Part shown: one piece after another, positions 2,862 through 28,082 of the stretch
How positions within the stretch are numbered: the stretch's first letter is position 1
Layout of the letters: every line of letters begins with the position of its first letter
Assembly (NCBI GenBank): GCA_902584805.1
Contig: CACIBE010000009.1
Coordinates: forward strand, 1 to 64,000
DNA length: 64,000 nucleotides
DNA from: an uncultured Alphaproteobacteria bacterium
GTDB taxonomy: Bacteria; Pseudomonadota; Alphaproteobacteria; HIMB59; GCA-002718135
Direction of reading: 5' to 3'
Translations under genes and position numbers: made by a program
The notes under the pieces: generated by a model
The model's input: the letters and a program-made list of their open reading frames with translations, nothing else
What the model was told of the DNA's origin: nothing
Databases searched by the model: none

Positions 2862-3473
2862 TTATAATCCACCTTGAGAAATTAAGAAGTCAGAGATTTT
2901 TTCAATTCCATTATTATTTTTCATTTCACCAAATATATAGGGTAAACCATTTCTGGCTTCATTCACATCCTGTTTCATCTGCTCCAGATCAACATTAACA
3001 TATGGGGCAAGATCAACTTTATTAATTACGAGTAAATCTGACTTTCTAATAGCTGGTGCTTTTTTTCTAGGTATGTCGGCACCTTGAGCCACATCTATCA
3101 TATAAATTGTTAAATCAACTAACTCTGGACTAAAAGTTGCTGCTAAATTGTCACCACCTGATTCAATTAAAATTAATTCTAAATCAGGAAATTTTTTTTT
3201 CATTTCATCCACTGCAAGTAAATTAATACTACAATCTTCTCTTATAGCAGTATGTGGACATCCACCAGTTTCAACACCTTTAATTCTTTCCATTGGAAGA
3301 ACTTGTGCTTTCATTAAATATTCAGCATCTTCAGTTGTATAAATATCATTTGAAATAACTGCCATAGAAACTTTTTTAGATAGATAACGACATAATGCTT
3401 CTGTTAAACTCGTTTTACCAGTGCCTATTCCACCACCAATACCTACCTTTAACGGTCCATTTATATTATTCAT
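2862..3473 (-). CDS. ureG: Urease accessory GTPase UreG
   Basis: SIMIBI-class GTPase of 203 residues that drives nickel delivery to urease in the UreD-F-G complex. Visible: P-loop GGGIGTGKT (13-21), the nickel-binding CPH motif at Cys72-Pro73-His74 in [11 protein letters not shown], the [15 protein letters not shown] segment, and the guanine-specificity motif NKVD. Length is normal for the family. Its start overlaps the ureF stop by 4 bp (translational coupling) and it is the last gene of the urease operon. It meets the 85-residue plus-strand gene with no gap. Confidence 0.97.
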
Positions 3474-4105
3474 GTTAAATATATCCTTGAATCTAAATTT
3501 TCATGCTTAATGGCAAAAATATCACCAATAAAAAAAGTTGAACCTATATCATTGAGAGTCAGTTTATCTGAATGAGTTAAAAATTCTTGAATTTGATTAA
3601 TAAAAATAACATTAAGACTCTGCCCATCTTTTTGTGACATTGGTATATGTTTTACACATACATTTATTAAATTAGATATAAATGAGTGTAAGTAAAACTT
3701 AATTAAATCATCAAACTTAATATCAAAATGTAATCCGGCTTTTGCCAAACAATATATAAATGATGTATTTTCAGGTAGAAATAATTCCCAGCTATCTTTC
3801 ATGATTTTACGAAAAGAATTTCCCATATCTATCATTTCTATTTGTCTTTCTTTGGATGGAGCACTTGCTAAGATTAATTCATTAACTTCCTCACCTTTGT
3901 AAATAGATTTCATAAAAATATAATCATTTCTTAATGTTCCATAAAATAAAAGGGCATCTAAAAATTCTTTAACATCATCTTTATTTTTAATTTTTTTATC
4001 ATCTATCAACGCTTCTAAACCATGAGAGTATGCGTAAGAACCAATAGGAAAAGAAGATGAAAACCATATTTGTAATATTTGATGAGGATCTTTAAATTTT
4101 TTCAT
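3470..4105 (-). CDS. ureF: Urease accessory protein UreF
   Basis: All-helical UreF, which binds UreD and acts on UreG GTPase activity during metallocentre assembly. The family hallmark near the N-terminus is present: [25 protein letters not shown] place the start at the ATG at 4105 (MKKFKDPHQ), 1 bp after the ureE stop, which gives 211 residues. The longer frame starting at 4171 would overlap the histidine-rich end of ureE by over 60 bp and adds an atypical extension. The C-terminal half is more divergent than the N-terminal half. Confidence 0.94.
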
Positions 4106-4106
4106 T

Positions 4107-4553
4107 TTAATGCTTGTGGCTATGCGTTCTGCCCAAACCATAAGCACCACCCTCTGGTTTAAATTTTTCAAAAACTTTTTTTACATTTCCTTGTAATTTT
4201 AGAACCATATCAAGAATTACAGCATCATCTTGAATAAGAATTCTGCTTTCTTCAATTTGACATGGCAGATGTCTATTGCCTATATGCCATATGATTTGCT
4301 TTAAATTATCACCCGTTATTTCAATTAAATTTTCTTCTTTAGATAATACTTTAATGATTTTACCATTTTCTAATTCAAAAAAATGATTTTCATCAACACT
4401 GACGGTTTCTTCAAGATTAACTAAAAATTCAGTACCATTATTTGCGGTAAGTTTTTTTCTACGAATAAATCTTTCTTCATAAGATAATGAGATTTCATCT
4501 AATAAATCCTTATTATTATGATTGTGATGAATTATTTTTAAAGAAGTTTGCAT
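4107..4553 (-). CDS. ureE: Urease nickel metallochaperone UreE
   Basis: A 148-residue UreE that supplies nickel to the UreDFG complex. The N-terminal domain contains LSYEERFIRRKKL, and the C-terminal metal-binding domain contains WHIGNRHLPC with the interface histidines at about 90 and 95. The protein ends in a short histidine tail HSHKH, a compact version of the His-rich tail found in other UreE proteins. The gene lies 1 bp from ureC and 1 bp from ureF within the operon. Confidence 0.96.
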   Translation of the reverse strand: MQTSLKIIHHNHNNKDLLDEISLSYEERFIRRKKLTANNGTEFLVNLEETVSVDENHFFELENGKIIKVLSKEENLIEITGDNLKQIIWHIGNRHLPCQIEESRILIQDDAVILDMVLKLQGNVKKVFEKFKPEGGAYGLGRTHSHKH

Positions 4554-4554
4554 T

Positions 4555-6261
4555 TTAATACATAAAATAACGTTGAGCTAAAGGTAGTGTTTTAGCTGGT
4601 TCACAAGTAATTAACTCACCATCTGCTAAAACTTCATAAGTTTCTGGGTTAACTTCTATTTTTGGACAATAATCATTTAATATCATATCTTTTTTAGAAA
4701 TTTTTCTAATATTTTTAACGGGTAATAGAGATTTACTTACATCAGAGTTTTTAAATGAATCTTTATCCAAAGAAACTTTACTTACAAAAGTTACAGTAGA
4801 TTTTTCTAATGATTTGCCAAAAGAAGAAAACATTGGTCTTGAGTACACTGGTTGTGGTGTTGGTATAGATGCATTAGGATCACCCATTTGTGCACATGAA
4901 ATACTTCCACCTTGTAATACCATTTCAGGTTTAACACCAAAAAAAGCAGTATCCCAAATAACAATATCAGCACGTTTATTTTTTTCGATACTTCCAATAT
5001 GATCAGAAATACCATGAGCTATTGCAGGATTAATTGTATATTTAGCAATGTATCTTTTAACTCTTACATTGTCGTTATCACCCTGCTCTTCTTTTAATTG
5101 TCCTCGTTGAACTTTCATTTTATGTGCTGTTTGCCATGTTCTAATAATAACCTCACCAACACGACCCATGGCCTGACTATCAGAAGCAATAATTGAAAAA
5201 GCACCCATGTCATGCAGTATATCTTCAGCTGCAATTGTTTCCTTTCGAATTCGACTTTCAGCAAAAGCAACGTCTTCAGGTATTGATTTATCTAAGTGAT
5301 GGCAAACCATTAACATATCTAAATGTTCTTCAACTGTATTAATTGTGTATGGTCTTGTTGGATTTGTAGATGACGGAATAACATACTGTTCTCCACATAT
5401 TTTAATTATATCCGGTGCATGACCCCCACCAGCTCCTTCAGTATGAAAGGCGTGAATTGTTCGTCCATTAATTGCTTTAATTGTACTTTCGACAAATCCA
5501 CTTTCATTTAATGTATCTGTATGAATCATTACTTGAATGTCATGATCATCAGCTACATTTAAACAATTATCTATTGCTGCTGGGGTTGTACCCCAATCTT
5601 CATGTAATTTTAGTGAGCTTGCACCAGCAATTACTTGTTCTTCAAGTGCTTGAGACAGTGAACTATTTCCTTTACCAGCAAAAGCCAAGTTCATAGAAAA
5701 AGCATCTGCTGACTGTATCATTCTTTCTATATGCCATGGTCCAGGTGTAACTGTTGTCGCCAAAGTACCATGTGCAGGACCAGTTCCTCCTCCCAGCATA
5801 GTTGTAATACCTGAATGAAGTGCATCATCTATTTGTTGAGGGCAAATAAAATGAATATGGCTATCAAAACCACCAGCTGTTATAATTTTTCCTTCACCAG
5901 CAATTATTTCTGTTCCTGGTCCAATAATAATATTTACATTTGGTTGAGTATCTGGATTACCTGCTTTTCCAATTTCGTTAATTAATCCATCTTTAAGACC
6001 AATATCAGCTTTGTAAATTCCATTTACATCTACTATTAAGGCGTTTGTTATAACTGTATCAACAGCACCATCTTTACGAGATACTTGAGATTGCCCCATT
6101 CCATCTCGAATAACTTTTCCTCCACCAAATTTTACTTCTTCTCCATATGTTGTTAAATCTTTTTCCACTTCAACAAAAAGTTCAGTGTCAGCAAGTCTGA
6201 CTTTATCACCAGTTGTTGGTCCATACATATCAGCATAAGCTTCTCTTTTTATTTTCTTCAT
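4555..6261 (-). CDS. ureC: Urease subunit alpha (catalytic)
   Basis: Catalytic subunit of urease, 568 residues, hydrolysing urea to ammonia and carbamate in the cytoplasm. All active-site residues are in place, offset by one from Klebsiella numbering: His135 and His137 (HIH), carbamylated Lys218 (SLKLHEDWG), His247 and His273 (nickel ligands), Cys320 of the mobile flap and the catalytic His321 (MVCHH), Asp361. The C-terminus RYFMY is close to the usual end. It overlaps the ureB stop by one base. With UreA and UreB as separate subunits this is the usual bacterial three-chain urease. Confidence 0.99.
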
Positions 6262-6569
6262 TACAATTGACCCATTACTTTCTTATTAAAACCAAATATC
6301 TTCCTATTTCCAGTTATTGGAATTAATTCTACATCTTTTGATTGACCAGGTTCAAACCGAACAGCTGTACCAGATGGTATATCTAAACGCATACCATTTG
6401 ATTTTTCTCTATCAAATTTTAAATATTCATTTGTTTCAGCAAAATGATAATGACTACCAACTTGAATTGGCCGATCTCCACTATTTGAAACTTTTAAAGT
6501 GATTGATTGTCTTTCATCATTTAAATTAATGTCACTATTTTTTTTTGTTATTATTTCACCAGGTTTCAT
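6261..6569 (-). CDS. ureB: Urease subunit beta
   Basis: Small structural urease subunit, 102 residues. It has the typical MKPGEIITK start, the [17 protein letters not shown] motif and the [17 protein letters not shown] motif near the C-terminus. It packs on UreC in the (ABC)3 assembly. The gene overlaps the stop of ureA and the start of ureC by one base each, which is tight coupling expected for equal stoichiometry. Confidence 0.98.
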
Positions 6570-6871
6570 TATCTAATCGGTTTATGTACTGTTACTAATT
6601 TTGTTCCATCTGGAAATGTTGCTTCTACCTGTACTTCAGAAATCATCTCTGGAATACCATCCATGCAATCTTCTTTTTTTACTACGTGAGCACCTGTTTC
6701 CATTAATTCTGATACCATTTTTCCATCTCTTGCACCTTCTATGACAAAATCTGTTATCAACGCTATAGCTTCTGGATAATTAAGTTTAACACCTCTTTCT
6801 AAACGCTTTCTGGCAACATTAGCTGCCATACTCACCATCAACTTATCTTTTTCTCTTGGTGTTAATTTCAT
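6569..6871 (-). CDS. ureA: Urease subunit gamma
   Basis: Smallest structural urease subunit, 100 residues. Typical features: [20 protein letters not shown] at the start, [19 protein letters not shown], the GKMVSELME motif, and [18 protein letters not shown] at the end. It starts directly after ureD with no intergenic bases and is followed by ureB with a one-base overlap. Confidence 0.98.
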
Positions 6872-7666
6872 TTATAGATCCCAACTTTTTGGTAGTTTAT
6901 CATTTATTACATTTTTCATAATAAAATTTAGTGTTTTTTTTAAATCATAATTATCATCGGCTAAGCACCTAATTACAATCTTATCATCAAATTTTGTCAT
7001 TTCACAATAATGATTTTCTAAGCTTTTTATAACTTTACTTAATTCAGACTCAAGTTGATGAATAATATCACCAAAAATTAAAATTGTTGATAAAGATGAT
7101 TGATTATTAAATGTATAATTGTTTTTAAAATTATCAATCATTGATCCTTTTATATTAATTGCTTCAAAATGCTTTATTGTAGAATTCTTAAAAATTTTCC
7201 ATTGATCAGAAAAAGAAATATTTTTAATTTTTTCAGACATTGCTTTTCTTCCAAAAATTGTAGTTTCACAAAAAATCAAATTAGAATTATTTGATAGATT
7301 AATATTTATACTTCTTCTTAATTTTGAATTATCAAATAAAATTAACTCTTTGGGTAACCAATACAAAGTTGAATTATTTAAATTGATATTTATATCTACT
7401 TTAGCAGGATCACCTATTCCTGAATAAATCTTTTCAGCGGCTTGCGTACAAATACTTAATTCAGAATTATGAATTGTAGCATTAATTTCAATATTATCAT
7501 TACAAGTAATTCCTCCTGCAGTGTTAATAAAAACTAATTCTTTACTTTTATTATAATTATTTGGATTTAAAATTTTACAACAACCACTTTGAAAAAATTT
7601 TTTAAAATTATTATCAAATAGTTCAATATTAATTTCCCCATTTGACCTTTGAAGTAATTTGTCCAT
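6872..7666 (-). CDS. ureD: Urease accessory protein UreD
   Basis: UreD (UreH) scaffold protein, 264 residues from the ATG at 7666 (MDKLLQRSNGE). The open frame extends upstream to 7741, but that part overlaps the tRNA-Arg gene and has no family-like sequence, so I reject the longer start. Family features: VFINTAGGITCNDNIEINATI (the usual NPPGGLVGGD-type region), CTQAAEKIYSG, and LYWLPKELILFDNSKLRRSI. UreD binds apo-urease and channels nickel from UreG/UreF. It is the first gene of the urease operon, immediately downstream of the tRNA. Confidence 0.93.
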   Translation of the reverse strand: MDKLLQRSNGEINIELFDNNFKKFFQSGCCKILNPNNYNKSKELVFINTAGGITCNDNIEINATIHNSELSICTQAAEKIYSGIGDPAKVDININLNNSTLYWLPKELILFDNSKLRRSININLSNNSNLIFCETTIFGRKAMSEKIKNISFSDQWKIFKNSTIKHFEAINIKGSMIDNFKNNYTFNNQSSLSTILIFGDIIHQLESELSKVIKSLENHYCEMTKFDDKIVIRCLADDNYDLKKTLNFIMKNVINDKLPKSWDL

Positions 7667-7715
7667 GATTATTAAATTAAGTATAATCGAAACAAAATAT
7701 ATGAAAATGAATATT

Positions 7716-7792
7716 TGGCGTGCCCGGCATGATTCGAACATGCGACCCCCAGATTAGGAATCTGGTGCTCTATCCTACTGAGCTACGGGCAC
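7716..7792 (-). tRNA. tRNA-Arg (anticodon CCT)
   Basis: Complete cloverleaf on the minus strand. The acceptor stem GTGCCCG pairs with CGGGCAC, the D-arm contains AGCTCAGTAGGATAGAGC, the anticodon stem is CCAGA/TCTGG with loop TTCCTAA (anticodon CCT), and the T-arm is GCATGTTCGAATCATGC. Discriminator is G and CCA is encoded (7716-7718). It decodes AGG. It lies between the 94-residue gene and ureD. Confidence 0.97.
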
Positions 7793-23837: not shown

Positions 23838-24677
23838 TTATTGTTGAGAATTATTTTCAAGTGTTTGAACGTGTATATCTAAGTTTTCAATCAAATTGTT
23901 TTGACCATTATGTCCGTAGAAAACCCCTTTTATAGGTGCAGCTTCACTTGCATCAAGGCCACAAGATACCCTTATATATCTTTCATCAGGGCTACAACCA
24001 TTTGTAGGATCAAAACCAACCCAACCAAGATCATCTATAAAAAATTCTGCCCATGCATGTGTTGACTGAAATTCTGATGAATGTGAATTATTATGCATAT
24101 AACCGTTAACATATCTAGCAGGTATATTGATTGATCTAGCAGCTGACACCATTATGTGTGCTTGATCCTGACATACACCTTTTTTTTGATTATAAGCTAC
24201 CTGAGCTGTTGTTTCATTATTTGTTGAAAGAGGTTTATATTCAACTTTTTCTCTTACTAAATTCATTAAATTGTGAGAAATAAGTAATCTTTCATCATTG
24301 TTAAAACCATTTTTTGCTTCTAAGGCTAAATTTTTTATGTCTACATCTGGAATAGTTAAATTTGAATTCCTTAAATAAACACATGGATCTAATTTATCAT
24401 CTGGGTTAGAATAAATCCCTTTTGTATCAAAAGTTTCTACTTTACCAAGAACAGTAAACTGAATTTTTTTTACTTTTTTTAAACTAGTAAAACTTTGTAT
24501 ATTATTTGCTTCTCCATCTTTATAGACTGCAGATTTTTCTGCAGAGTCATGATGAACATTCCAATCTAGAATTTTTAAACCATTATATTCAGATGGATAA
24601 AGTTTAGTTGATTGTATAAGTCCAGCTACAGGATTTTTATATTCATATTTAGTTGTATGCTCAATTATTATTTCCAT
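23838..24677 (-). CDS. Transglutaminase-like cysteine peptidase
   Basis: A 279-residue protein with an N-terminal bacterial transglutaminase beta domain (EHTTKYEYKNPVAGLIQS...) and a C-terminal transglutaminase-like core. Catalytic Cys is in KKGVCQDQAHIM, His in STHAWAEFF, and Asp in WVGFDPTNG. No signal peptide, so it is cytoplasmic. It overlaps the alpha-E gene by one base. The trio ATP-grasp / alpha-E / transglutaminase is a widespread conserved cassette proposed to make and process peptide or amide bonds, but its product is unknown. Confidence 0.93.
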   Translation of the reverse strand: MEIIIEHTTKYEYKNPVAGLIQSTKLYPSEYNGLKILDWNVHHDSAEKSAVYKDGEANNIQSFTSLKKVKKIQFTVLGKVETFDTKGIYSNPDDKLDPCVYLRNSNLTIPDVDIKNLALEAKNGFNNDERLLISHNLMNLVREKVEYKPLSTNNETTAQVAYNQKKGVCQDQAHIMVSAARSINIPARYVNGYMHNNSHSSEFQSTHAWAEFFIDDLGWVGFDPTNGCSPDERYIRVSCGLDASEAAPIKGVFYGHNGQNNLIENLDIHVQTLENNSQQ

Positions 24678-25612
24678 TAATTAAAAAACTCCTTTTGAAT
24701 ATCAGAATCTACGCTTGAAATTTTATTAATAAATTGTGTAACAAATTCATGAAGGCCAAAATCAACAATTGACTCTATTTTCTCTTCTTGAATTTTAATA
24801 TTAAGATTTTTTAAGGTATTATAAATTTTATTAACTTTCTCAGGACTGCAAGTCAAATTTGTTAAGTGTTTTACAATGTTTTGTATACAAAAACTAAGTG
24901 ATCTTGGACAATCACTGTTTAGTACTAAAAAATCAGCTATTTTTGTAGAAGTAACATCACCATCGTATGCCCAACGAAAAGCTCTAAAAGATGATAAAGA
25001 TCTAAGGAGTATACTCCATTGCATATTATCAATATTACCTCCAATATATTGAGGTTTAGGTAGTAAAACAAAATATTTAACATCTAATAATCTTGCAGAA
25101 TTATCTGCCCTTTCAACAAATAATCCTAAATAAAGAAAGTTATAACCATCGTTTCTTAATAAAGAACTTAATGAACCTCTAAATAAATTTACTTGTTCGA
25201 TAGTCCATTCAGTTAAATTAGGAAGGTCTGATGCATTAAAATTATTATTTTTTAATTTTAAAATTTCTTGATAAGTTTTGTTAATAGCTAGCCAAGATTC
25301 AGGTGTGAATGAAGTTCTTACAACTAAAGCATTACTTCTAGCATTAAGAATACAATTAAAAACAGATGATGGATTATCTTCATCAAAAAATAAATAATCT
25401 TCAACCTTTTTTTGTTCAATAATATTATATTTATTCTTGTATCCTTGTATTGCGCCTGCAGCAGCTAAAACAGATTCCCACTCATTATTGTATCCATTTG
25501 GATTAGGAAATAATGACATTCTATAACCTACATCTAAGAGTCTAGCATTAGTCTCAGCTCTCTCCATATATCTACTAATCCAGTAAAGATACTCAGCTGT
25601 TCTACTTAACAT
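24677..25612 (-). CDS. Alpha-E domain protein
   Basis: All-helical alpha-E (DUF403) protein, 311 residues. The start MLSRTAEYLYWISRYMERAETNAR is diagnostic, and a second family block reads GLFVERADNSARLLDVKYF. Function is unproven; it always travels with circularly permuted ATP-grasp and transglutaminase genes. It starts 6 bp after the ATP-grasp gene and overlaps the transglutaminase start by one base, so the three are translationally linked. Confidence 0.93.
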   Translation of the reverse strand: MLSRTAEYLYWISRYMERAETNARLLDVGYRMSLFPNPNGYNNEWESVLAAAGAIQGYKNKYNIIEQKKVEDYLFFDEDNPSSVFNCILNARSNALVVRTSFTPESWLAINKTYQEILKLKNNNFNASDLPNLTEWTIEQVNLFRGSLSSLLRNDGYNFLYLGLFVERADNSARLLDVKYFVLLPKPQYIGGNIDNMQWSILLRSLSSFRAFRWAYDGDVTSTKIADFLVLNSDCPRSLSFCIQNIVKHLTNLTCSPEKVNKIYNTLKNLNIKIQEEKIESIVDFGLHEFVTQFINKISSVDSDIQKEFFN

Positions 25613-25618
25613 TGTATC

Positions 25619-27025
25619 TCATTCCGCTAAAACCCATGTATCTTTGACTCCACCACCTTGACTTGAATTAACAACGAAAGATCCCTCGTTCATTGCAACT
25701 CTTGTTAATCCTCCAGAACTTAATTGTGCATTTTCTCCCATTAAACAAAAAGGTCTCAAATCAACTCTTCTTCCTTCAACTTGATTTTTTATCAAAGTTG
25801 GAGAGAATGATAGATCTAAGAGAGGTTGCGCAATATACCCCCGAGGATTTGCTGAAAGTTTTCTTCTAAATTCTTCAATTGAGGATTTAGAGGATTTTGG
25901 ACCTATTAGCATCCCGTATCCTCCAGAGCCATCAACTTCTTTTACAACAAGATCAGATAAGTTATCTAATACATAATTAAGATCATCATCTTTGTCACAA
26001 CTCCATGTTTGAACATTTTCTAATATTGGTTGTTCTCCTAAATAAAATTTTATCATTTCTGGAACATAAATATAAATTGCTTTGTCATCTGCGATACCAG
26101 CACCCGGAGCTGAACAAATATTTACTCCTCCAGTTCTATACACATCCATAATTCCAGGAATTCCAATTACTGAATTTGGGTTAAAACAAAGAGGATCTAA
26201 AAAATCATCATCTATCCTTCTATATACAACATCTACTTTTTTGGGACCATCCACGGTTTTCATGTATAGAAATTCACCCTCAACAAACAAATCAGTAGAC
26301 TCTACCATTTCAATACCCATTTGATCGGATAGAAAACTATGTTCATAATAAGCACTATTCAATGGACCAGGTGTAAGAAGAACACATACTGGCTCAGATG
26401 TGTTGCATTTTATTGGAGCTAAACTCATTAAAGTCTGAAGTAATCTAGTTGGATAATCATCAATAGGTGTAACTCGATTTGTATGAAATAAATCAGGAAA
26501 CATTCTCATCATTATTTCTCTATTTTCTAACATGTATGATACACCGCTAGGTGTTCTACAATTATCTTCTAATACAAAATACTCATTATGATTTGTTCTT
26601 ACTAAATCTATACCTACTATTGGACTATAAATTGATCTAGGTGGTGTAAAACCAAACATTGAAACTTCGTAAGATTTTTTTTTAAAAATTAATTCTTTAG
26701 GTATAATATTAGCTTTTATTATTTCTCCTTGATTATAAATGTCTGCTAAAAAAGCATTTAAAGCTTTCGCTCTTTGAATTACTCCTTTTTCTAATTTAGA
26801 CCATTCACTAAAAGTAAAAATTCTTGGAATTAAATCAAATGGTATTATTCTCTCTCTTGCTGTTTCACTATTAGTTGAGAATGTTATTCCTATATTTCTA
26901 AAATGAGTCTCAGCCTCAGCATTTTTTTCATTAATCACTTTAGCAGTCATTTTTTCTAACCATTCATTTATATTGTTATAATGATTTCTGATTAGACTCT
27001 CAGATTGATACATTTCATTAAACAT
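25619..27025 (-). CDS. Circularly permuted ATP-grasp protein
   Basis: A 468-residue protein of the circularly permuted ATP-grasp family (DUF404/DUF407). Diagnostic stretches: RIFTFSEWSKLEKGVIQRAKALNAFLADIY, YFVLEDNCRTPSGVSYMLENR, VDVVYRRIDDDFLDP, VVKEVDGSGGYGMLIGP (ATP-binding loop) and GGLTRVAMNEGS near the C-terminus. ATP-grasp ligases form amide or thioester bonds through acyl phosphates; this family is predicted to ligate amino groups but has no firmly assigned product. It is the first gene behind the tandem glutamine riboswitch. An alternative ATG lies at 27013. Confidence 0.94.
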   Translation of the reverse strand: MFNEMYQSESLIRNHYNNINEWLEKMTAKVINEKNAEAETHFRNIGITFSTNSETARERIIPFDLIPRIFTFSEWSKLEKGVIQRAKALNAFLADIYNQGEIIKANIIPKELIFKKKSYEVSMFGFTPPRSIYSPIVGIDLVRTNHNEYFVLEDNCRTPSGVSYMLENREIMMRMFPDLFHTNRVTPIDDYPTRLLQTLMSLAPIKCNTSEPVCVLLTPGPLNSAYYEHSFLSDQMGIEMVESTDLFVEGEFLYMKTVDGPKKVDVVYRRIDDDFLDPLCFNPNSVIGIPGIMDVYRTGGVNICSAPGAGIADDKAIYIYVPEMIKFYLGEQPILENVQTWSCDKDDDLNYVLDNLSDLVVKEVDGSGGYGMLIGPKSSKSSIEEFRRKLSANPRGYIAQPLLDLSFSPTLIKNQVEGRRVDLRPFCLMGENAQLSSGGLTRVAMNEGSFVVNSSQGGGVKDTWVLAE

Positions 27026-27027
27026 AT

Positions 27028-27117
27028 TTAGTACGATGAAATGAATGAAGTATTTATAAATCCAAACTTAATACCTATCATATTTAATAACAGTCCTTTC
27101 AATCTGTTATAGTTCAT
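27028..27117 (-). CDS. Possible 29-codon leader ORF between riboswitch and ATP-grasp gene
   Basis: An ATG at 27117 opens 29 codons (begins MNYNRLKGLLLNMIG, ends SFISSY) and stops 2 nt before the ATP-grasp ATG, in another frame. The ORF spans the segment that can pair with aptamer 2. No clear Shine-Dalgarno is seen, so it may be fortuitous in AT-rich sequence. Confidence 0.25.
   Translation of the reverse strand: MNYNRLKGLLLNMIGIKFGFINTSFISSY
27087..27110 (-). promoter_or_regulatory. Expression-platform hairpin downstream of the glutamine riboswitch
   Basis: ATAACAG / CTGTTAT forms a 7-bp stem. On the minus strand its loop region carries ATTGAAAGGA. The overlapping 11-mer AACAGATTGAA (plus-strand 27098-27108) is a perfect complement of TTCAATCTGTT (27183-27193) in the conserved 5' part of aptamer 2. 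The two pairings exclude each other, as expected for a switching element. Confidence 0.5.
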
Positions 27118-27140
27118 GCTTAGCTATGGATTTTTATAAG

Positions 27141-27197
27141 ATCCGCGTTCCTTCAGCTTTAGCTTACTTCCGATCTGTTAAAAACAGATTGAACGAT
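27141..27197 (-). promoter_or_regulatory. Glutamine riboswitch (glnA motif), aptamer 2
   Basis: Second of two tandem glnA-motif aptamers. Read on the minus strand: CGTTCA, a 7-bp hairpin ATCTGTT/AACAGAT (27173-27189), the conserved CGGAAGTAAG (27163-27172), a small AGCT/AGCT hairpin, then GAAGGAACGC (27145-27154). CGTTC and GAACG close P1. The core CGGAAGTA and GAAGGAACGC strings are the hallmarks of the glnA RNA. It lies about 116 nt upstream of the ATP-grasp start. Confidence 0.88.
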
Positions 27198-27208
27198 TTA
27201 ATAACTTG

Positions 27209-27265
27209 CATGCGTTCCTTCAACTTTCTTCTACTTCCGTTTTGAATTATTCAAAATGAACGATG
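27209..27265 (-). promoter_or_regulatory. Glutamine riboswitch (glnA motif), aptamer 1
   Basis: First aptamer of the tandem. P1 is CATCGTTC with GAACG-C-ATG (one bulged C). The internal hairpin is TTTTGAA/TTCAAAA (27240-27256), followed by the conserved CGGAAGTAG (27231-27239) and GAAGGAACGC (27212-27221). Eleven bases separate it from aptamer 2. The hairpin sequences differ completely between the two copies while the core strings are the same, which is covariation-like support for two functional aptamers. Confidence 0.88.
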
Positions 27266-27362
27266 TAAAAATTAATAATAAAAATTATTTATATTTAAAT
27301 TGATTATGATCATATTTAGATATGCAAAAAATGCATATATAAAAAAATAGCTAAATTGCTTA

Positions 27363-28082
27363 CTAAGAGAAGTCTTTTAATGACTTATTTAAACAAATAT
27401 ATGAAAAATAACCTGTGCAGATTAACCAGATAATTAACACTATAGTATCATTTATAATTAAATTTATTTCAGATTTAGTAACTAATCTCAATGTTGTTGC
27501 TGACCATATTACGGTAAAAAAAATAGTTAAGTTTCGATAAGATTTTACTCTTAATGGATGAACAAATTTAAAAGGAATAAAAGTTAATATTGATAAAATA
27601 ATAATTACAATAAGATTTATCCAAACATTTGAATTTAATATGAAAAAATAAAGTACTACAATATTCCAAATTGCAGGAAATCCTCTGAAATAATAATCAT
27701 CAGTTTTCATATTAACATTAATAAAAGTGTACAATGAAACTCCAAATATTATTGCTGGCATTATAATTTCAAAACCATTTGGGACTAATTGAAACCAGTA
27801 AATCATTAAAGCAGGGTTAATAACATAGTTAAGATAATCGACTATACTATCTAAAATTATTCCATCTAAATTTGGTGCTTTTTCCTCTACCCCTATTCTT
27901 CTTGCTAATGTACCATCAATCCCGTCAACTAATAATGCTAAACCTAACCATAAAAAAGCACCAGTTTGATCATTATTCAATATTGATATTAAGGCAAGGA
28001 ATCCAAGTATAGCTCCTGATCCTGTAAAAGCATGGACACCCCATGCTGATATTTGGTCCTTATTAACTTTCATAAATTCCAT
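27363..28082 (-). CDS. pcs: Phosphatidylcholine synthase (CDP-alcohol phosphatidyltransferase)
   Basis: A 239-residue membrane enzyme that joins choline directly to CDP-diacylglycerol to give phosphatidylcholine, the one-step route of alphaproteobacteria. The CDP-alcohol phosphotransferase motif is DGIDGTLARRIGVEEKAPNLDG..LDSIVD (DGx2ARx..Gx3Dx3D type, slightly spread as in Pcs). The N-terminus AWGVHAFTGSGAILGFLAL matches the Pcs-specific GWxVHxxTASGAxxxFLAL pattern. About eight membrane helices. An alternative ATG three codons in is possible. Monocistronic. Confidence 0.88.
   Translation of the reverse strand: MEFMKVNKDQISAWGVHAFTGSGAILGFLALISILNNDQTGAFLWLGLALLVDGIDGTLARRIGVEEKAPNLDGIILDSIVDYLNYVINPALMIYWFQLVPNGFEIIMPAIIFGVSLYTFINVNMKTDDYYFRGFPAIWNIVVLYFFILNSNVWINLIVIIILSILTFIPFKFVHPLRVKSYRNLTIFFTVIWSATTLRLVTKSEINLIINDTIVLIIWLICTGYFSYICLNKSLKDFS

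What the first reader, a model, noticed from the sequence alone, without database searches (positions are those of the whole stretch)
27028..27265. Tandem glutamine riboswitches control an ATP-grasp / alpha-E / transglutaminase operon
Seen: two complete glnA-motif aptamers in series, with identical core strings (CGGAAGTA and GAAGGAACGC) but different stem sequences, directly ahead of the circularly permuted ATP-grasp gene. Known: glnA RNAs bind L-glutamine and are best known upstream of glutamine synthetase and ammonium transport genes. Inference: this widespread but functionally unassigned cassette is under glutamine control here, which ties its unknown product to nitrogen status. Two aptamers in series suggest a steeper or wider response.
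Basis: partly seen in the sequence, partly recalled or inferred. Interest (0 to 1): 0.85.

Follow-up and report, generated by a model that had tools for sequence, protein, structure and literature searches.

The report
Twin glutamine riboswitches before orphan operon
Two RNA sensors for the amino acid glutamine sit in series in front of an unexplained enzyme operon in a marine bacterium and its relatives, which ties that operon to the cell's nitrogen supply.

Summary
Confirmed. Two glutamine (glnA-type, RF01739) aptamers lie in series on the minus strand at 27209-27264 (59.0 bits) and 27142-27197 (65.9 bits; cut-off 35), ahead of an operon of circularly permuted ATP-grasp, Alpha-E and transglutaminase. 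The genome has three more such pairs, before two ammonium transporters and glnA, so the operon belongs to a nitrogen-assimilation regulon. All 33 genomes with this ATP-grasp among 60 of the family carry the RNA there. In a distant family, 23 of 32 genomes have the gene, the same 23 have the RNA, and it ends within about 46 nt of the ATP-grasp start in all 23. 47 other ATP-grasp loci lack it. New details: a conserved linker that can pair with a conserved 3' tail, and a short leader ORF ending at the ATP-grasp start in 43 of 43 distinct leaders, so translation is probably coupled. I expect glutamine to lower expression; P. putida induces the related operon in nitrogen limitation, probably through NtrC. 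Binding and direction are not shown, and folding gave no switch at this leader. Riboswitch class and tandem layout are known; target, hosts and architecture are, as far as searched, new.

The parts
27321..27337 (.). palindrome TATGCA-N5-TGCATA upstream of aptamer 1, candidate transcription-factor operator
   Evidence: One of three exact copies in the genome; another is before amt1. TGCA-N5-TGCA lies 91-96 nt upstream of the aptamer 1 core in 28 of 33 distinct cassette leaders and 28 of 44 amt1-type leaders, with varying spacer letters; 0 of 35 glnA, 0 of 14 amt2 and 0 of 23 f10 leaders have it. The short form also occurs at three other places in the window.
27209..27264 (-). glutamine riboswitch aptamer 1
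   Evidence: RF01739, 59.0 bits; one non-standard pair marked in P3
27196..27212 (-). inter-aptamer linker (CAUGC-A-AGUUAU-UAAAU), 5' strand of the proposed linker:tail helix
   Evidence: sequence; conserved in related leaders; duplex with the tail better than almost all shuffled linkers, mean z -3.2 in 37 cassette leaders
27142..27197 (-). glutamine riboswitch aptamer 2
   Evidence: RF01739, 65.9 bits
27115..27145 (-). conserved 3' tail with AUAGCU-AA-GCAUG, 3' strand of the linker:tail helix
   Evidence: RNAalifold draws GCAUG pairing with the linker
27087..27110 (-). small hairpin AUAACAG/CUGUUAU with the Shine-Dalgarno-like GAAAGGA (27100-27094) in its loop
   Evidence: sequence; stem kept with G-C, A-U and G-U variants in the 13 diverse cassette leaders aligned, weaker in L033 (read by eye)
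27028..27081 (-). leader ORF, 17 codons, stop 2 nt before the ATP-grasp start
   Evidence: such an ORF in 43 of 43 distinct cassette leaders of the family, stop end -5 to +8 nt from the ATP-grasp ATG; 7% for shuffled bodies
25619..27025 (-). circularly permuted ATP-grasp (CP_ATPgrasp_2), 468 aa
   Evidence: Pfam 513 bits; only solved chain matched 3n6x
24677..25612 (-). Alpha-E protein, 311 aa
   Evidence: Pfam 277 bits
23838..24677 (-). transglutaminase-like protein, 279 aa; Cys, His and Asp motifs present (GVCQD, THAW, FDPT; role of the motifs recalled)
   Evidence: Pfam Transglut_core and Bact_transglu_N; motifs read from the sequence

Best explanation
A tandem type-1 glutamine riboswitch in the 5' leader controls the ATP-grasp / Alpha-E / transglutaminase operon, most likely at translation. 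Each aptamer folds around glutamine. The linker after aptamer 1 pairs with the tail after aptamer 2, so both aptamers and the tail form one composite device just ahead of the ribosome-binding site of a 17-codon leader ORF. The leader ORF ends at the ATP-grasp start, so ATP-grasp translation is coupled to it. High glutamine lowers translation; when nitrogen is short the cassette is made together with the Amt transporters and glutamine synthetase. Shown here: the aptamers, their conservation and covariation, their constant position before the cassette in two families, the shared regulon, the leader ORF. Inferred: glutamine binding, the OFF sign, translational rather than transcriptional control, coupling.
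For: RF01739 hits far above cut-off. Same tandem device before two amt genes and glnA in the same genome. 33 of 33 ATP-grasp genomes of the family sample carry it at the operon, 32 as a pair and one cut by a contig end. In family f10, 23 of 32 genomes have the RNA and the same 23 have ATP-grasp; RNA 0 to about 46 nt before the ATP-grasp ATG in all 23, and in 21 of 23 it is the genome's only match. 13 of 29 consensus pairs change on both sides in 63 diverse leaders. Leader ORF ends at the ATP-grasp start in 43 of 43. No intrinsic terminator found in the leader. OFF sign: in L300 and L301 the only good Shine-Dalgarno (GAAGGA, 6 nt from ATG) is part of the aptamer (read by eye); in 14 of 18 distinct f10 leaders the ribosome-binding region becomes less open when the aptamer is forced, mean 0.52 to 0.40, against a change of -0.02 for shuffled tails; glnA leaders 0.70 to 0.53, lower in 28 of 33. 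P. putida PP_2686-2688 rise 11-37 fold in nitrogen limitation and are listed under ntrB/ntrC (PMC7801951).
Against: At this operon's own leaders forcing the aptamers does not change Shine-Dalgarno openness (0.83 and 0.83 over 38 leaders; lower in 9), and for amt it rises slightly, 0.35 to 0.38 over 54. In a first f10 test with a cruder choice of six-base window, openness rose in 16 of 22 and fell in 3, so the fold evidence depends on the window. In one search four of 18 rise. The experimentally tested glutamine riboswitches in cyanobacteria activate on glutamine (PMC6316151). The linker:tail helix has almost no covariation.
Confidence: 0.7

Rival explanations
1. Glutamine switches the cassette ON. 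The ATP-grasp/transglutaminase system uses or stores excess nitrogen, as gifB serves nitrogen excess in cyanobacteria.
For: The tested type-1 and type-2 glutamine riboswitches activate on glutamine (PMC6316151). Folding gives no OFF signal at this leader.
Against: The same device precedes amt and glnA, where ON would be the wrong sign for feedback. The related operon is induced by nitrogen limitation in P. putida. The Shine-Dalgarno lies inside the aptamer in L300 and L301.
Confidence: 0.2
2. The RNA acts through transcription (premature termination, possibly Rho-dependent, or RNA stability) rather than translation.
For: Predicted Shine-Dalgarno openness at the cassette leaders does not change with aptamer folding. 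The glnA leader has a GGGUA...UACCC-UUUU element seen by eye.
Against: No terminator-like site in the window's leader, 0 found. The leader ORF start keeps a distance of 60-70 nt from aptamer 2 in 43 cassette leaders.
Confidence: 0.2
3. The RNA and cassette reached two lineages by one transfer as a hitch-hiking unit, so the association is inheritance rather than repeated selection.
For: f1, f10 and a set of metagenome proteins form one group apart from the other ATP-grasp proteins (98/97), while the sister family f2 has a different type (47-51% identity for full-length matches; tree).
Against: It does not remove the functional link: the RNA is kept before ATP-grasp in all 33 and 23 genomes while, in the eight neighbourhoods fetched, the neighbours change. 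The single (f10) and tandem (f1) forms differ.
Confidence: 0.35
4. Chance or artefact: the motif is not a working riboswitch.
For: No experiment exists here.
Against: Scores of 59 and 66 bits, two-sided covariation, conservation in tens of species.
Confidence: 0.02

Closest known systems
glnA / type-1 glutamine riboswitch (RF01739)
   Same: Full-length match to the model, same core, P1-P3, nitrogen genes downstream; tandem copies were reported in 2010 (PMC2864571, passages).
   Different: Target is an ATP-grasp / Alpha-E / transglutaminase operon; [quoted passage not shown] Conserved linker:tail complementarity and a leader ORF.
Glutamine-II (Downstream-peptide, RF01704) riboswitch
   Same: Related aptamer; short ORF downstream.
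   Different: Window scores 17.2 bits against a cut-off of 33; the leader ORF peptides here are not conserved between clades.
Anbu operon (ATP-grasp, Alpha-E, transglutaminase, Anbu)
   Same: Same three genes in the same order; nitrogen-linked expression of the Anbu operon (PMC5666114, PMC6376114, PMC7801951, passages).
   Different: No Anbu found here; control by a riboswitch, where P. putida is thought to use NtrC.
Tandem riboswitches (e.g. the tandem glycine riboswitch, recalled)
   Same: Two aptamers for the same ligand, linker between them.
   Different: No test of cooperativity here; the linker can pair with a tail beyond aptamer 2.

Membership tests
Glutamine riboswitch RF01739 | covariance-model score above the gathering cut-off (35 bits) | tested here: met
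   65.9 and 59.0 bits
Glutamine riboswitch RF01739 | conserved core and three stems kept by covariation | tested here: met
   P2 and P3 change on both sides in both aptamers over 63 leaders. P1 never varies, and the cores were part of the search pattern that chose the leaders, so their invariance is built in. RNAalifold drew an extended P2 instead of P1 for aptamer 2.
Glutamine riboswitch RF01739 | 5' leader position before nitrogen-related genes | tested here: met
   amt1, amt2, glnA in the same genome
Glutamine riboswitch RF01739 | selective L-glutamine binding | not testable with these tools
   needs in-line probing or ITC
Glutamine riboswitch RF01739 | glutamine-dependent change in expression | tested here: inconclusive
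   folding suggests OFF in most f10 and glnA leaders, no change at cassette leaders, opposite with a cruder window
Glutamine-II riboswitch RF01704 | score above cut-off (33 bits) | tested here: not met
   17.2 bits
Anbu operon | ATP-grasp, Alpha-E and transglutaminase genes together | tested here: met
Anbu operon | Anbu proteasome-like gene in the operon | tested here: not met
   The only PF00227 match in this 85% complete assembly is a 182-aa frame on another contig that overlaps the start of an HslU-like ATPase frame, so HslV by context. Pfam scans of three window ORFs downstream of the cassette and of eight ORFs near the cassette in six loci gave no Proteasome match; other ORFs of the eight neighbourhoods were looked at by eye only.

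The most novel reading that the evidence does not exclude
The ATP-grasp / Alpha-E / transglutaminase cassette is a core nitrogen-shortage function, for example making or remodelling a nitrogen-bearing peptide or scavenging nitrogen from proteins, and marine streamlined Alphaproteobacteria replaced the protein regulator NtrC at this operon by a dedicated glutamine-sensing RNA. In f10 this is usually the genome's only such RNA. In the window's lineage it became a composite two-aptamer device that gates a coupling leader ORF, with a second, transcriptional layer (palindrome) shared with amt1.
Probability: 0.45. Interest if true: 0.8.

Novelty: new variant of a known kind. Interest (0 to 1): 0.64.

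Why it matters
Relatives of this ATP-grasp gene are widespread (152 of 385 sampled class genomes), and one of the papers consulted says that the hypotheses on the operon's role have not been experimentally confirmed (PMC6376114, passages). A ligand-specific sensor in front of the operon says what the cell measures before making it, independently of the Pseudomonas data. That makes its function testable: grow with little or much glutamine or ammonium and look for the product. It also places glutamine riboswitches, described as cyanobacterial, in uncultured marine heterotrophs with a defined regulon. The searches 'glutamine riboswitch' + 'ATP-grasp' and + 'transglutaminase' found no paper; only openly licensed PubMed Central papers are covered, and the 2011 paper on glutamine-binding aptamers could not be opened.

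Tried and rejected
1. AAUCUGUU before aptamer 2 as an anti-aptamer strand: it is the 5' strand of P2. Its pairing with AACAGAUU near the ribosome-binding site exists in the window's clade but not in L072 (read by eye), so I dropped it.

2. Tail UUUCCAU as a general anti-Shine-Dalgarno: good for amt (AUGGAGG), only 3 pairs at the cassette leaders (read by eye).

3. Fold-based switch test at f1 cassette leaders: no change (only leaders whose Shine-Dalgarno the script recognised, 38 cassette, 33 glnA, 54 amt). First f10 test used a poor Shine-Dalgarno picker and gave the opposite sign (22 of 23, L297 skipped for N). The second used the 13 nt before the start: 18 distinct leaders of 23; L297 (N), L300 and L301 (tail under 20 nt) left out, two identical sequences merged.

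4. Gln-rich leader-peptide attenuation: Q appears in only 2 of the 43 leader peptides (read), so rejected.

5. 'Operon includes the 119-aa and 133-aa genes downstream': they follow the cassette in some relatives only.

6. NtrC/sigma-54 sites before 24 ATP-grasp genes without the RNA: sigma-54-like within 2 mismatches in 9 (3.5 expected from shuffles), NtrC-like in 7 (3.6 expected). Suggestive only.

7. Tree: P0018 is an f10/f1 chimera (first part matches one almost fully, second part the other), so the first tree (65 rows) was rebuilt without it on 31 chosen rows. Holding f1 and f10 together as one clade is rejected (p-AU 1.4e-6), because the metagenome proteins group with f1.

8. Linker:tail helix: RNAalifold finds its outer five pairs, but four of five never vary and the fifth varies on one side in 2 of 63. 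The leaders aligned had to have GCAUG after aptamer 2: 200 of 221 two-aptamer rows passed; the 21 left out are 18 rows without GCAUG in the 60 nt after aptamer 2, two cut by an end there (L141, L196) and one cut before aptamer 1 (L144) (tails of those read by eye: a different tail, except in the cut ones L144 and L196). So the helix is proposed, not proven.

Full report
What is there. The minus strand of the window holds, in order, a palindrome (27321-27337), two RF01739 aptamers (27264-27209 and 27197-27142), a conserved tail (27145-27115), a small hairpin with the Shine-Dalgarno-like GAAAGGA in its loop, a 17-codon leader ORF (27081-27028) and then the operon ATP-grasp (27025-25619), Alpha-E (25612-24677), transglutaminase (24677-23838). 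The aptamer hits are far beyond chance.

The regulon. The genome (G000, 1.37 Mb, 85% complete) holds eight RF01739 matches, all above cut-off, in four pairs. The other three pairs precede two ammonium transporter genes about 2 kb apart and glnA, the last in the glnB-glnA gap. Of 60 genomes of the same family 57 have the RNA. In one search, 117 of 121 groups (many are the same locus fetched twice) are pairs with cores 62-74 nt apart. Of the four singles L063 and L111 are cut by contig ends, L092 holds a second, slightly changed core, and L079 is truly single; L112 is another true single; both precede a more divergent transporter.

The link to the cassette. ATP-grasp is found in 33 of 60 family genomes, all in the window's genus. 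All 33 have the RNA just upstream (30 loci plus three fetched; 32 pairs, one cut by a contig end). In the class sample of 385 genomes 152 have ATP-grasp and 6 have RF01739, all six also with ATP-grasp: two of the window's family (one of them the window's own genome) and four of family f10 (this search used stricter filters that lose weak matches). Of the 32 f10 genomes searched, 23 have the RNA and the same 23 have ATP-grasp (58-63% identity to the window's); the RNA, a single aptamer, ends 0 to about 46 nt before the ATP-grasp start in all 23. In 21 of these 23 it is the only RF01739 match of the genome; G535 has four and G538 two. The sister family f2 has ATP-grasp in 36 of 52 genomes, 47-51% identity for the full-length matches, and none of the genomes with RF01739 in the order search is of f2 (95 of 150 genomes, all f1). 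A scan for the aptamer core (up to 2 substitutions) in the 400 nt upstream of 47 other ATP-grasp loci, 24 of the class, 20 of f2 and 3 others, found none; cmscan of 12 of them found none either. In the 20 f2 loci Alpha-E and transglutaminase were not found beside ATP-grasp with the window's proteins as queries. Of 24 other genomes with tandem glutamine RNAs three have a distant ATP-grasp (46-49%), without the RNA before it.

Neighbourhood. In eight fetched loci (four f10, four f1) ATP-grasp, Alpha-E and transglutaminase always follow each other, while the flanking genes differ between clades. In L312 (f10) P-II and glutamine synthetase genes lie about 2 kb downstream. No Anbu gene was found: the only proteasome-family match in the window's assembly lies next to an HslU-like gene, and Pfam scans of ORFs near the cassette gave none (a part of the ORFs).

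Evolution. ATP-grasp proteins of f1, f10 and a set of metagenome proteins of unknown hosts form one group apart from the other ATP-grasp proteins (98/97; 31 rows chosen from the 65, P0018 dropped as a chimera). f2 proteins lie elsewhere. So the cassette probably moved between lineages. Whether the RNA moved with it is open, because the metagenome group could not be read upstream.

Architecture. In 63 diverse leaders (from 121 distinct ones; targets cassette, amt, glnA) the RNA consensus has 29 pairs, 13 with changes on both sides, in P2 and P3 of both aptamers. RNAalifold, unprompted, also pairs CAUGC of the linker with GCAUG of the tail, but four of these five pairs never vary, and the presence of GCAUG was a condition of the selection (200 of 221 rows passed). 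A second stretch, AGUUAU with AUAGCU or AUAACU, extends it (read by eye). Linker-tail duplex energies beat shuffled linkers (mean z -3.2, -3.8, -3.8 for 37 cassette, 32 glnA, 54 amt leaders), and the helix is in the minimum-energy fold of 37, 20 and 53 of these when the aptamers are forced, 32, 4 and 49 when free. So at glnA its formation goes with aptamer folding; at the other two it is mostly there anyway. I treat the helix as likely, not proven.

Leader ORF. In 43 of 43 distinct cassette leaders (84 locus rows) of the window's family an ORF of 16-25 codons starts 60-70 nt after aptamer 2 and its stop ends -5 to +8 nt from the ATP-grasp ATG, often as TGATG, TAATG or TAAATATG. Shuffled bodies do so in 7%. 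The leaders are related, so 43 is not 43 independent cases, but the peptides and lengths differ between clades. In f10 the aptamer ends at most about 46 nt before the ATP-grasp start; I did not look for leader ORFs there.

Second control layer. TGCA-N5-TGCA at 91-96 nt upstream of the aptamer 1 core is found in 28 of 33 cassette and 28 of 44 amt1-type leaders but in none of 35 glnA, 14 amt2 and 23 f10 leaders; it also occurs at three other places in the window. The 17-base form TATGCA-N5-TGCATA occurs exactly three times in the genome: amt1, this operon, and C8:49582; with up to one mismatch nine places, against one for the reversed pattern. I do not name the regulator.

Mechanism. No terminator-like element was found in the window's leader. 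In two f10 loci (L300, L301) GAAGGAACGCAT-ATG puts the Shine-Dalgarno inside the aptamer, which argues for OFF. In 18 distinct f10 leaders forcing the aptamer lowers the openness of the 13 nt before the start from 0.52 to 0.40 on average; 14 fall (one by 0.01), four rise; shuffled tails change by -0.02. An earlier version with a poor six-base window rose in 16 of 22 and fell in 3, while its wider window fell from 0.51 to 0.45 on average. At f1 the effect is 0.70 to 0.53 for glnA (lower in 28 of 33), none at the cassette (0.83 to 0.83, lower in 9 of 38) and 0.35 to 0.38 at amt (lower in 20 of 54). The OFF sign thus rests on regulon logic, two f10 loci, moderate folding evidence and the P. putida data.

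Literature, all read as passages found by term. Weinberg 2010 (PMC2864571): glnA RNAs, some in tandem, with PII, GS, glutamate synthase and amt. A review of cyanobacterial GS (PMC6316151): activation by glutamine, restriction to cyanobacteria. Anbu papers PMC5666114 and PMC6376114: the operon, its unconfirmed role, nitrogen-linked expression. PMC7801951: PP_2686-2688 up 11-37 fold under nitrogen limitation (PP_2685, the proteasome-like gene, 1.1-4.8 fold), 'likely to be controlled by NtrB/NtrC', beside urtABCD; that PP_2687-2688 are Alpha-E and ATP-grasp is my inference from the operon, since the paper calls them hypothetical. PMC3597751: urea-metabolism domains associated with DUF403/404/407 and Bact_transglu_N in marine metagenomes. 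PMC9004378: glutamine riboswitches in marine phages. PMC10308909: no occurrence of riboswitch, ammonium or glutamine. [quoted passage not shown]

Verdict. The riboswitch class and the tandem layout are known; the target, the hosts and the composite leader are new as far as the searches reached. Function of the cassette product and the sign of control remain to be measured.

Noticed in passing
window 5829-6108 +: Rfam 5_ureB_sRNA hit (93 bits) lies antisense inside a urease large-subunit-like gene (4555-6261 -). It probably reflects conserved urease coding sequence, not an RNA gene. Urease-type genes (named by eye) span about 2862-7741, some 20 kb from the cassette.
   Followed up: no
window 27212-27238 -: Aptamer 1 of this genome has a mismatch in P3 (GAA-GAAA-GUU; marks it) where the other leaders keep the pair (by eye), so it may bind less well than aptamer 2.
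   Followed up: partly
L304 (G000 C8:49582-49598): Third exact copy of TATGCA-N5-TGCATA in the genome, in a gap before a glycosyltransferase-like ORF (by eye).
   Followed up: partly
L312 (G388, family f10): About 2 kb downstream of the cassette lie P-II and glutamine synthetase genes; no aptamer there, since the genome's only RF01739 match is before the cassette.
   Followed up: yes
L149, L158, L205: Three glutamine aptamer cores in a row in records labelled SAR86 or Pseudomonadota; L149 and L205 have a different linker (CGCCGUUA...AACG) and a GUUAAAC/GUUUGAC hairpin after the last (by eye).
   Followed up: no
L163, L167, L211: In records labelled Gammaproteobacteria or SAR86 the glutamine RNAs precede what looks like a eukaryote-type glutamine synthetase (by eye from its N terminus).
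   Followed up: no
P0018: Metagenome protein matching an f10 ATP-grasp in its first half and the window's in its second half: an assembly chimera or a recombinant.
   Followed up: partly
window 27363-28082 -: The gene upstream resembles phosphatidylcholine synthase (best 230 bits, below the NCBIfam cut-off of 300).
   Followed up: no
L329, L330 upstream of ATP-grasp: Exact sigma-54 type promoter sequences (TGGCAC-N5-TTGC) 86-90 nt before the gene in two Alphaproteobacteria without the RNA.
   Followed up: partly
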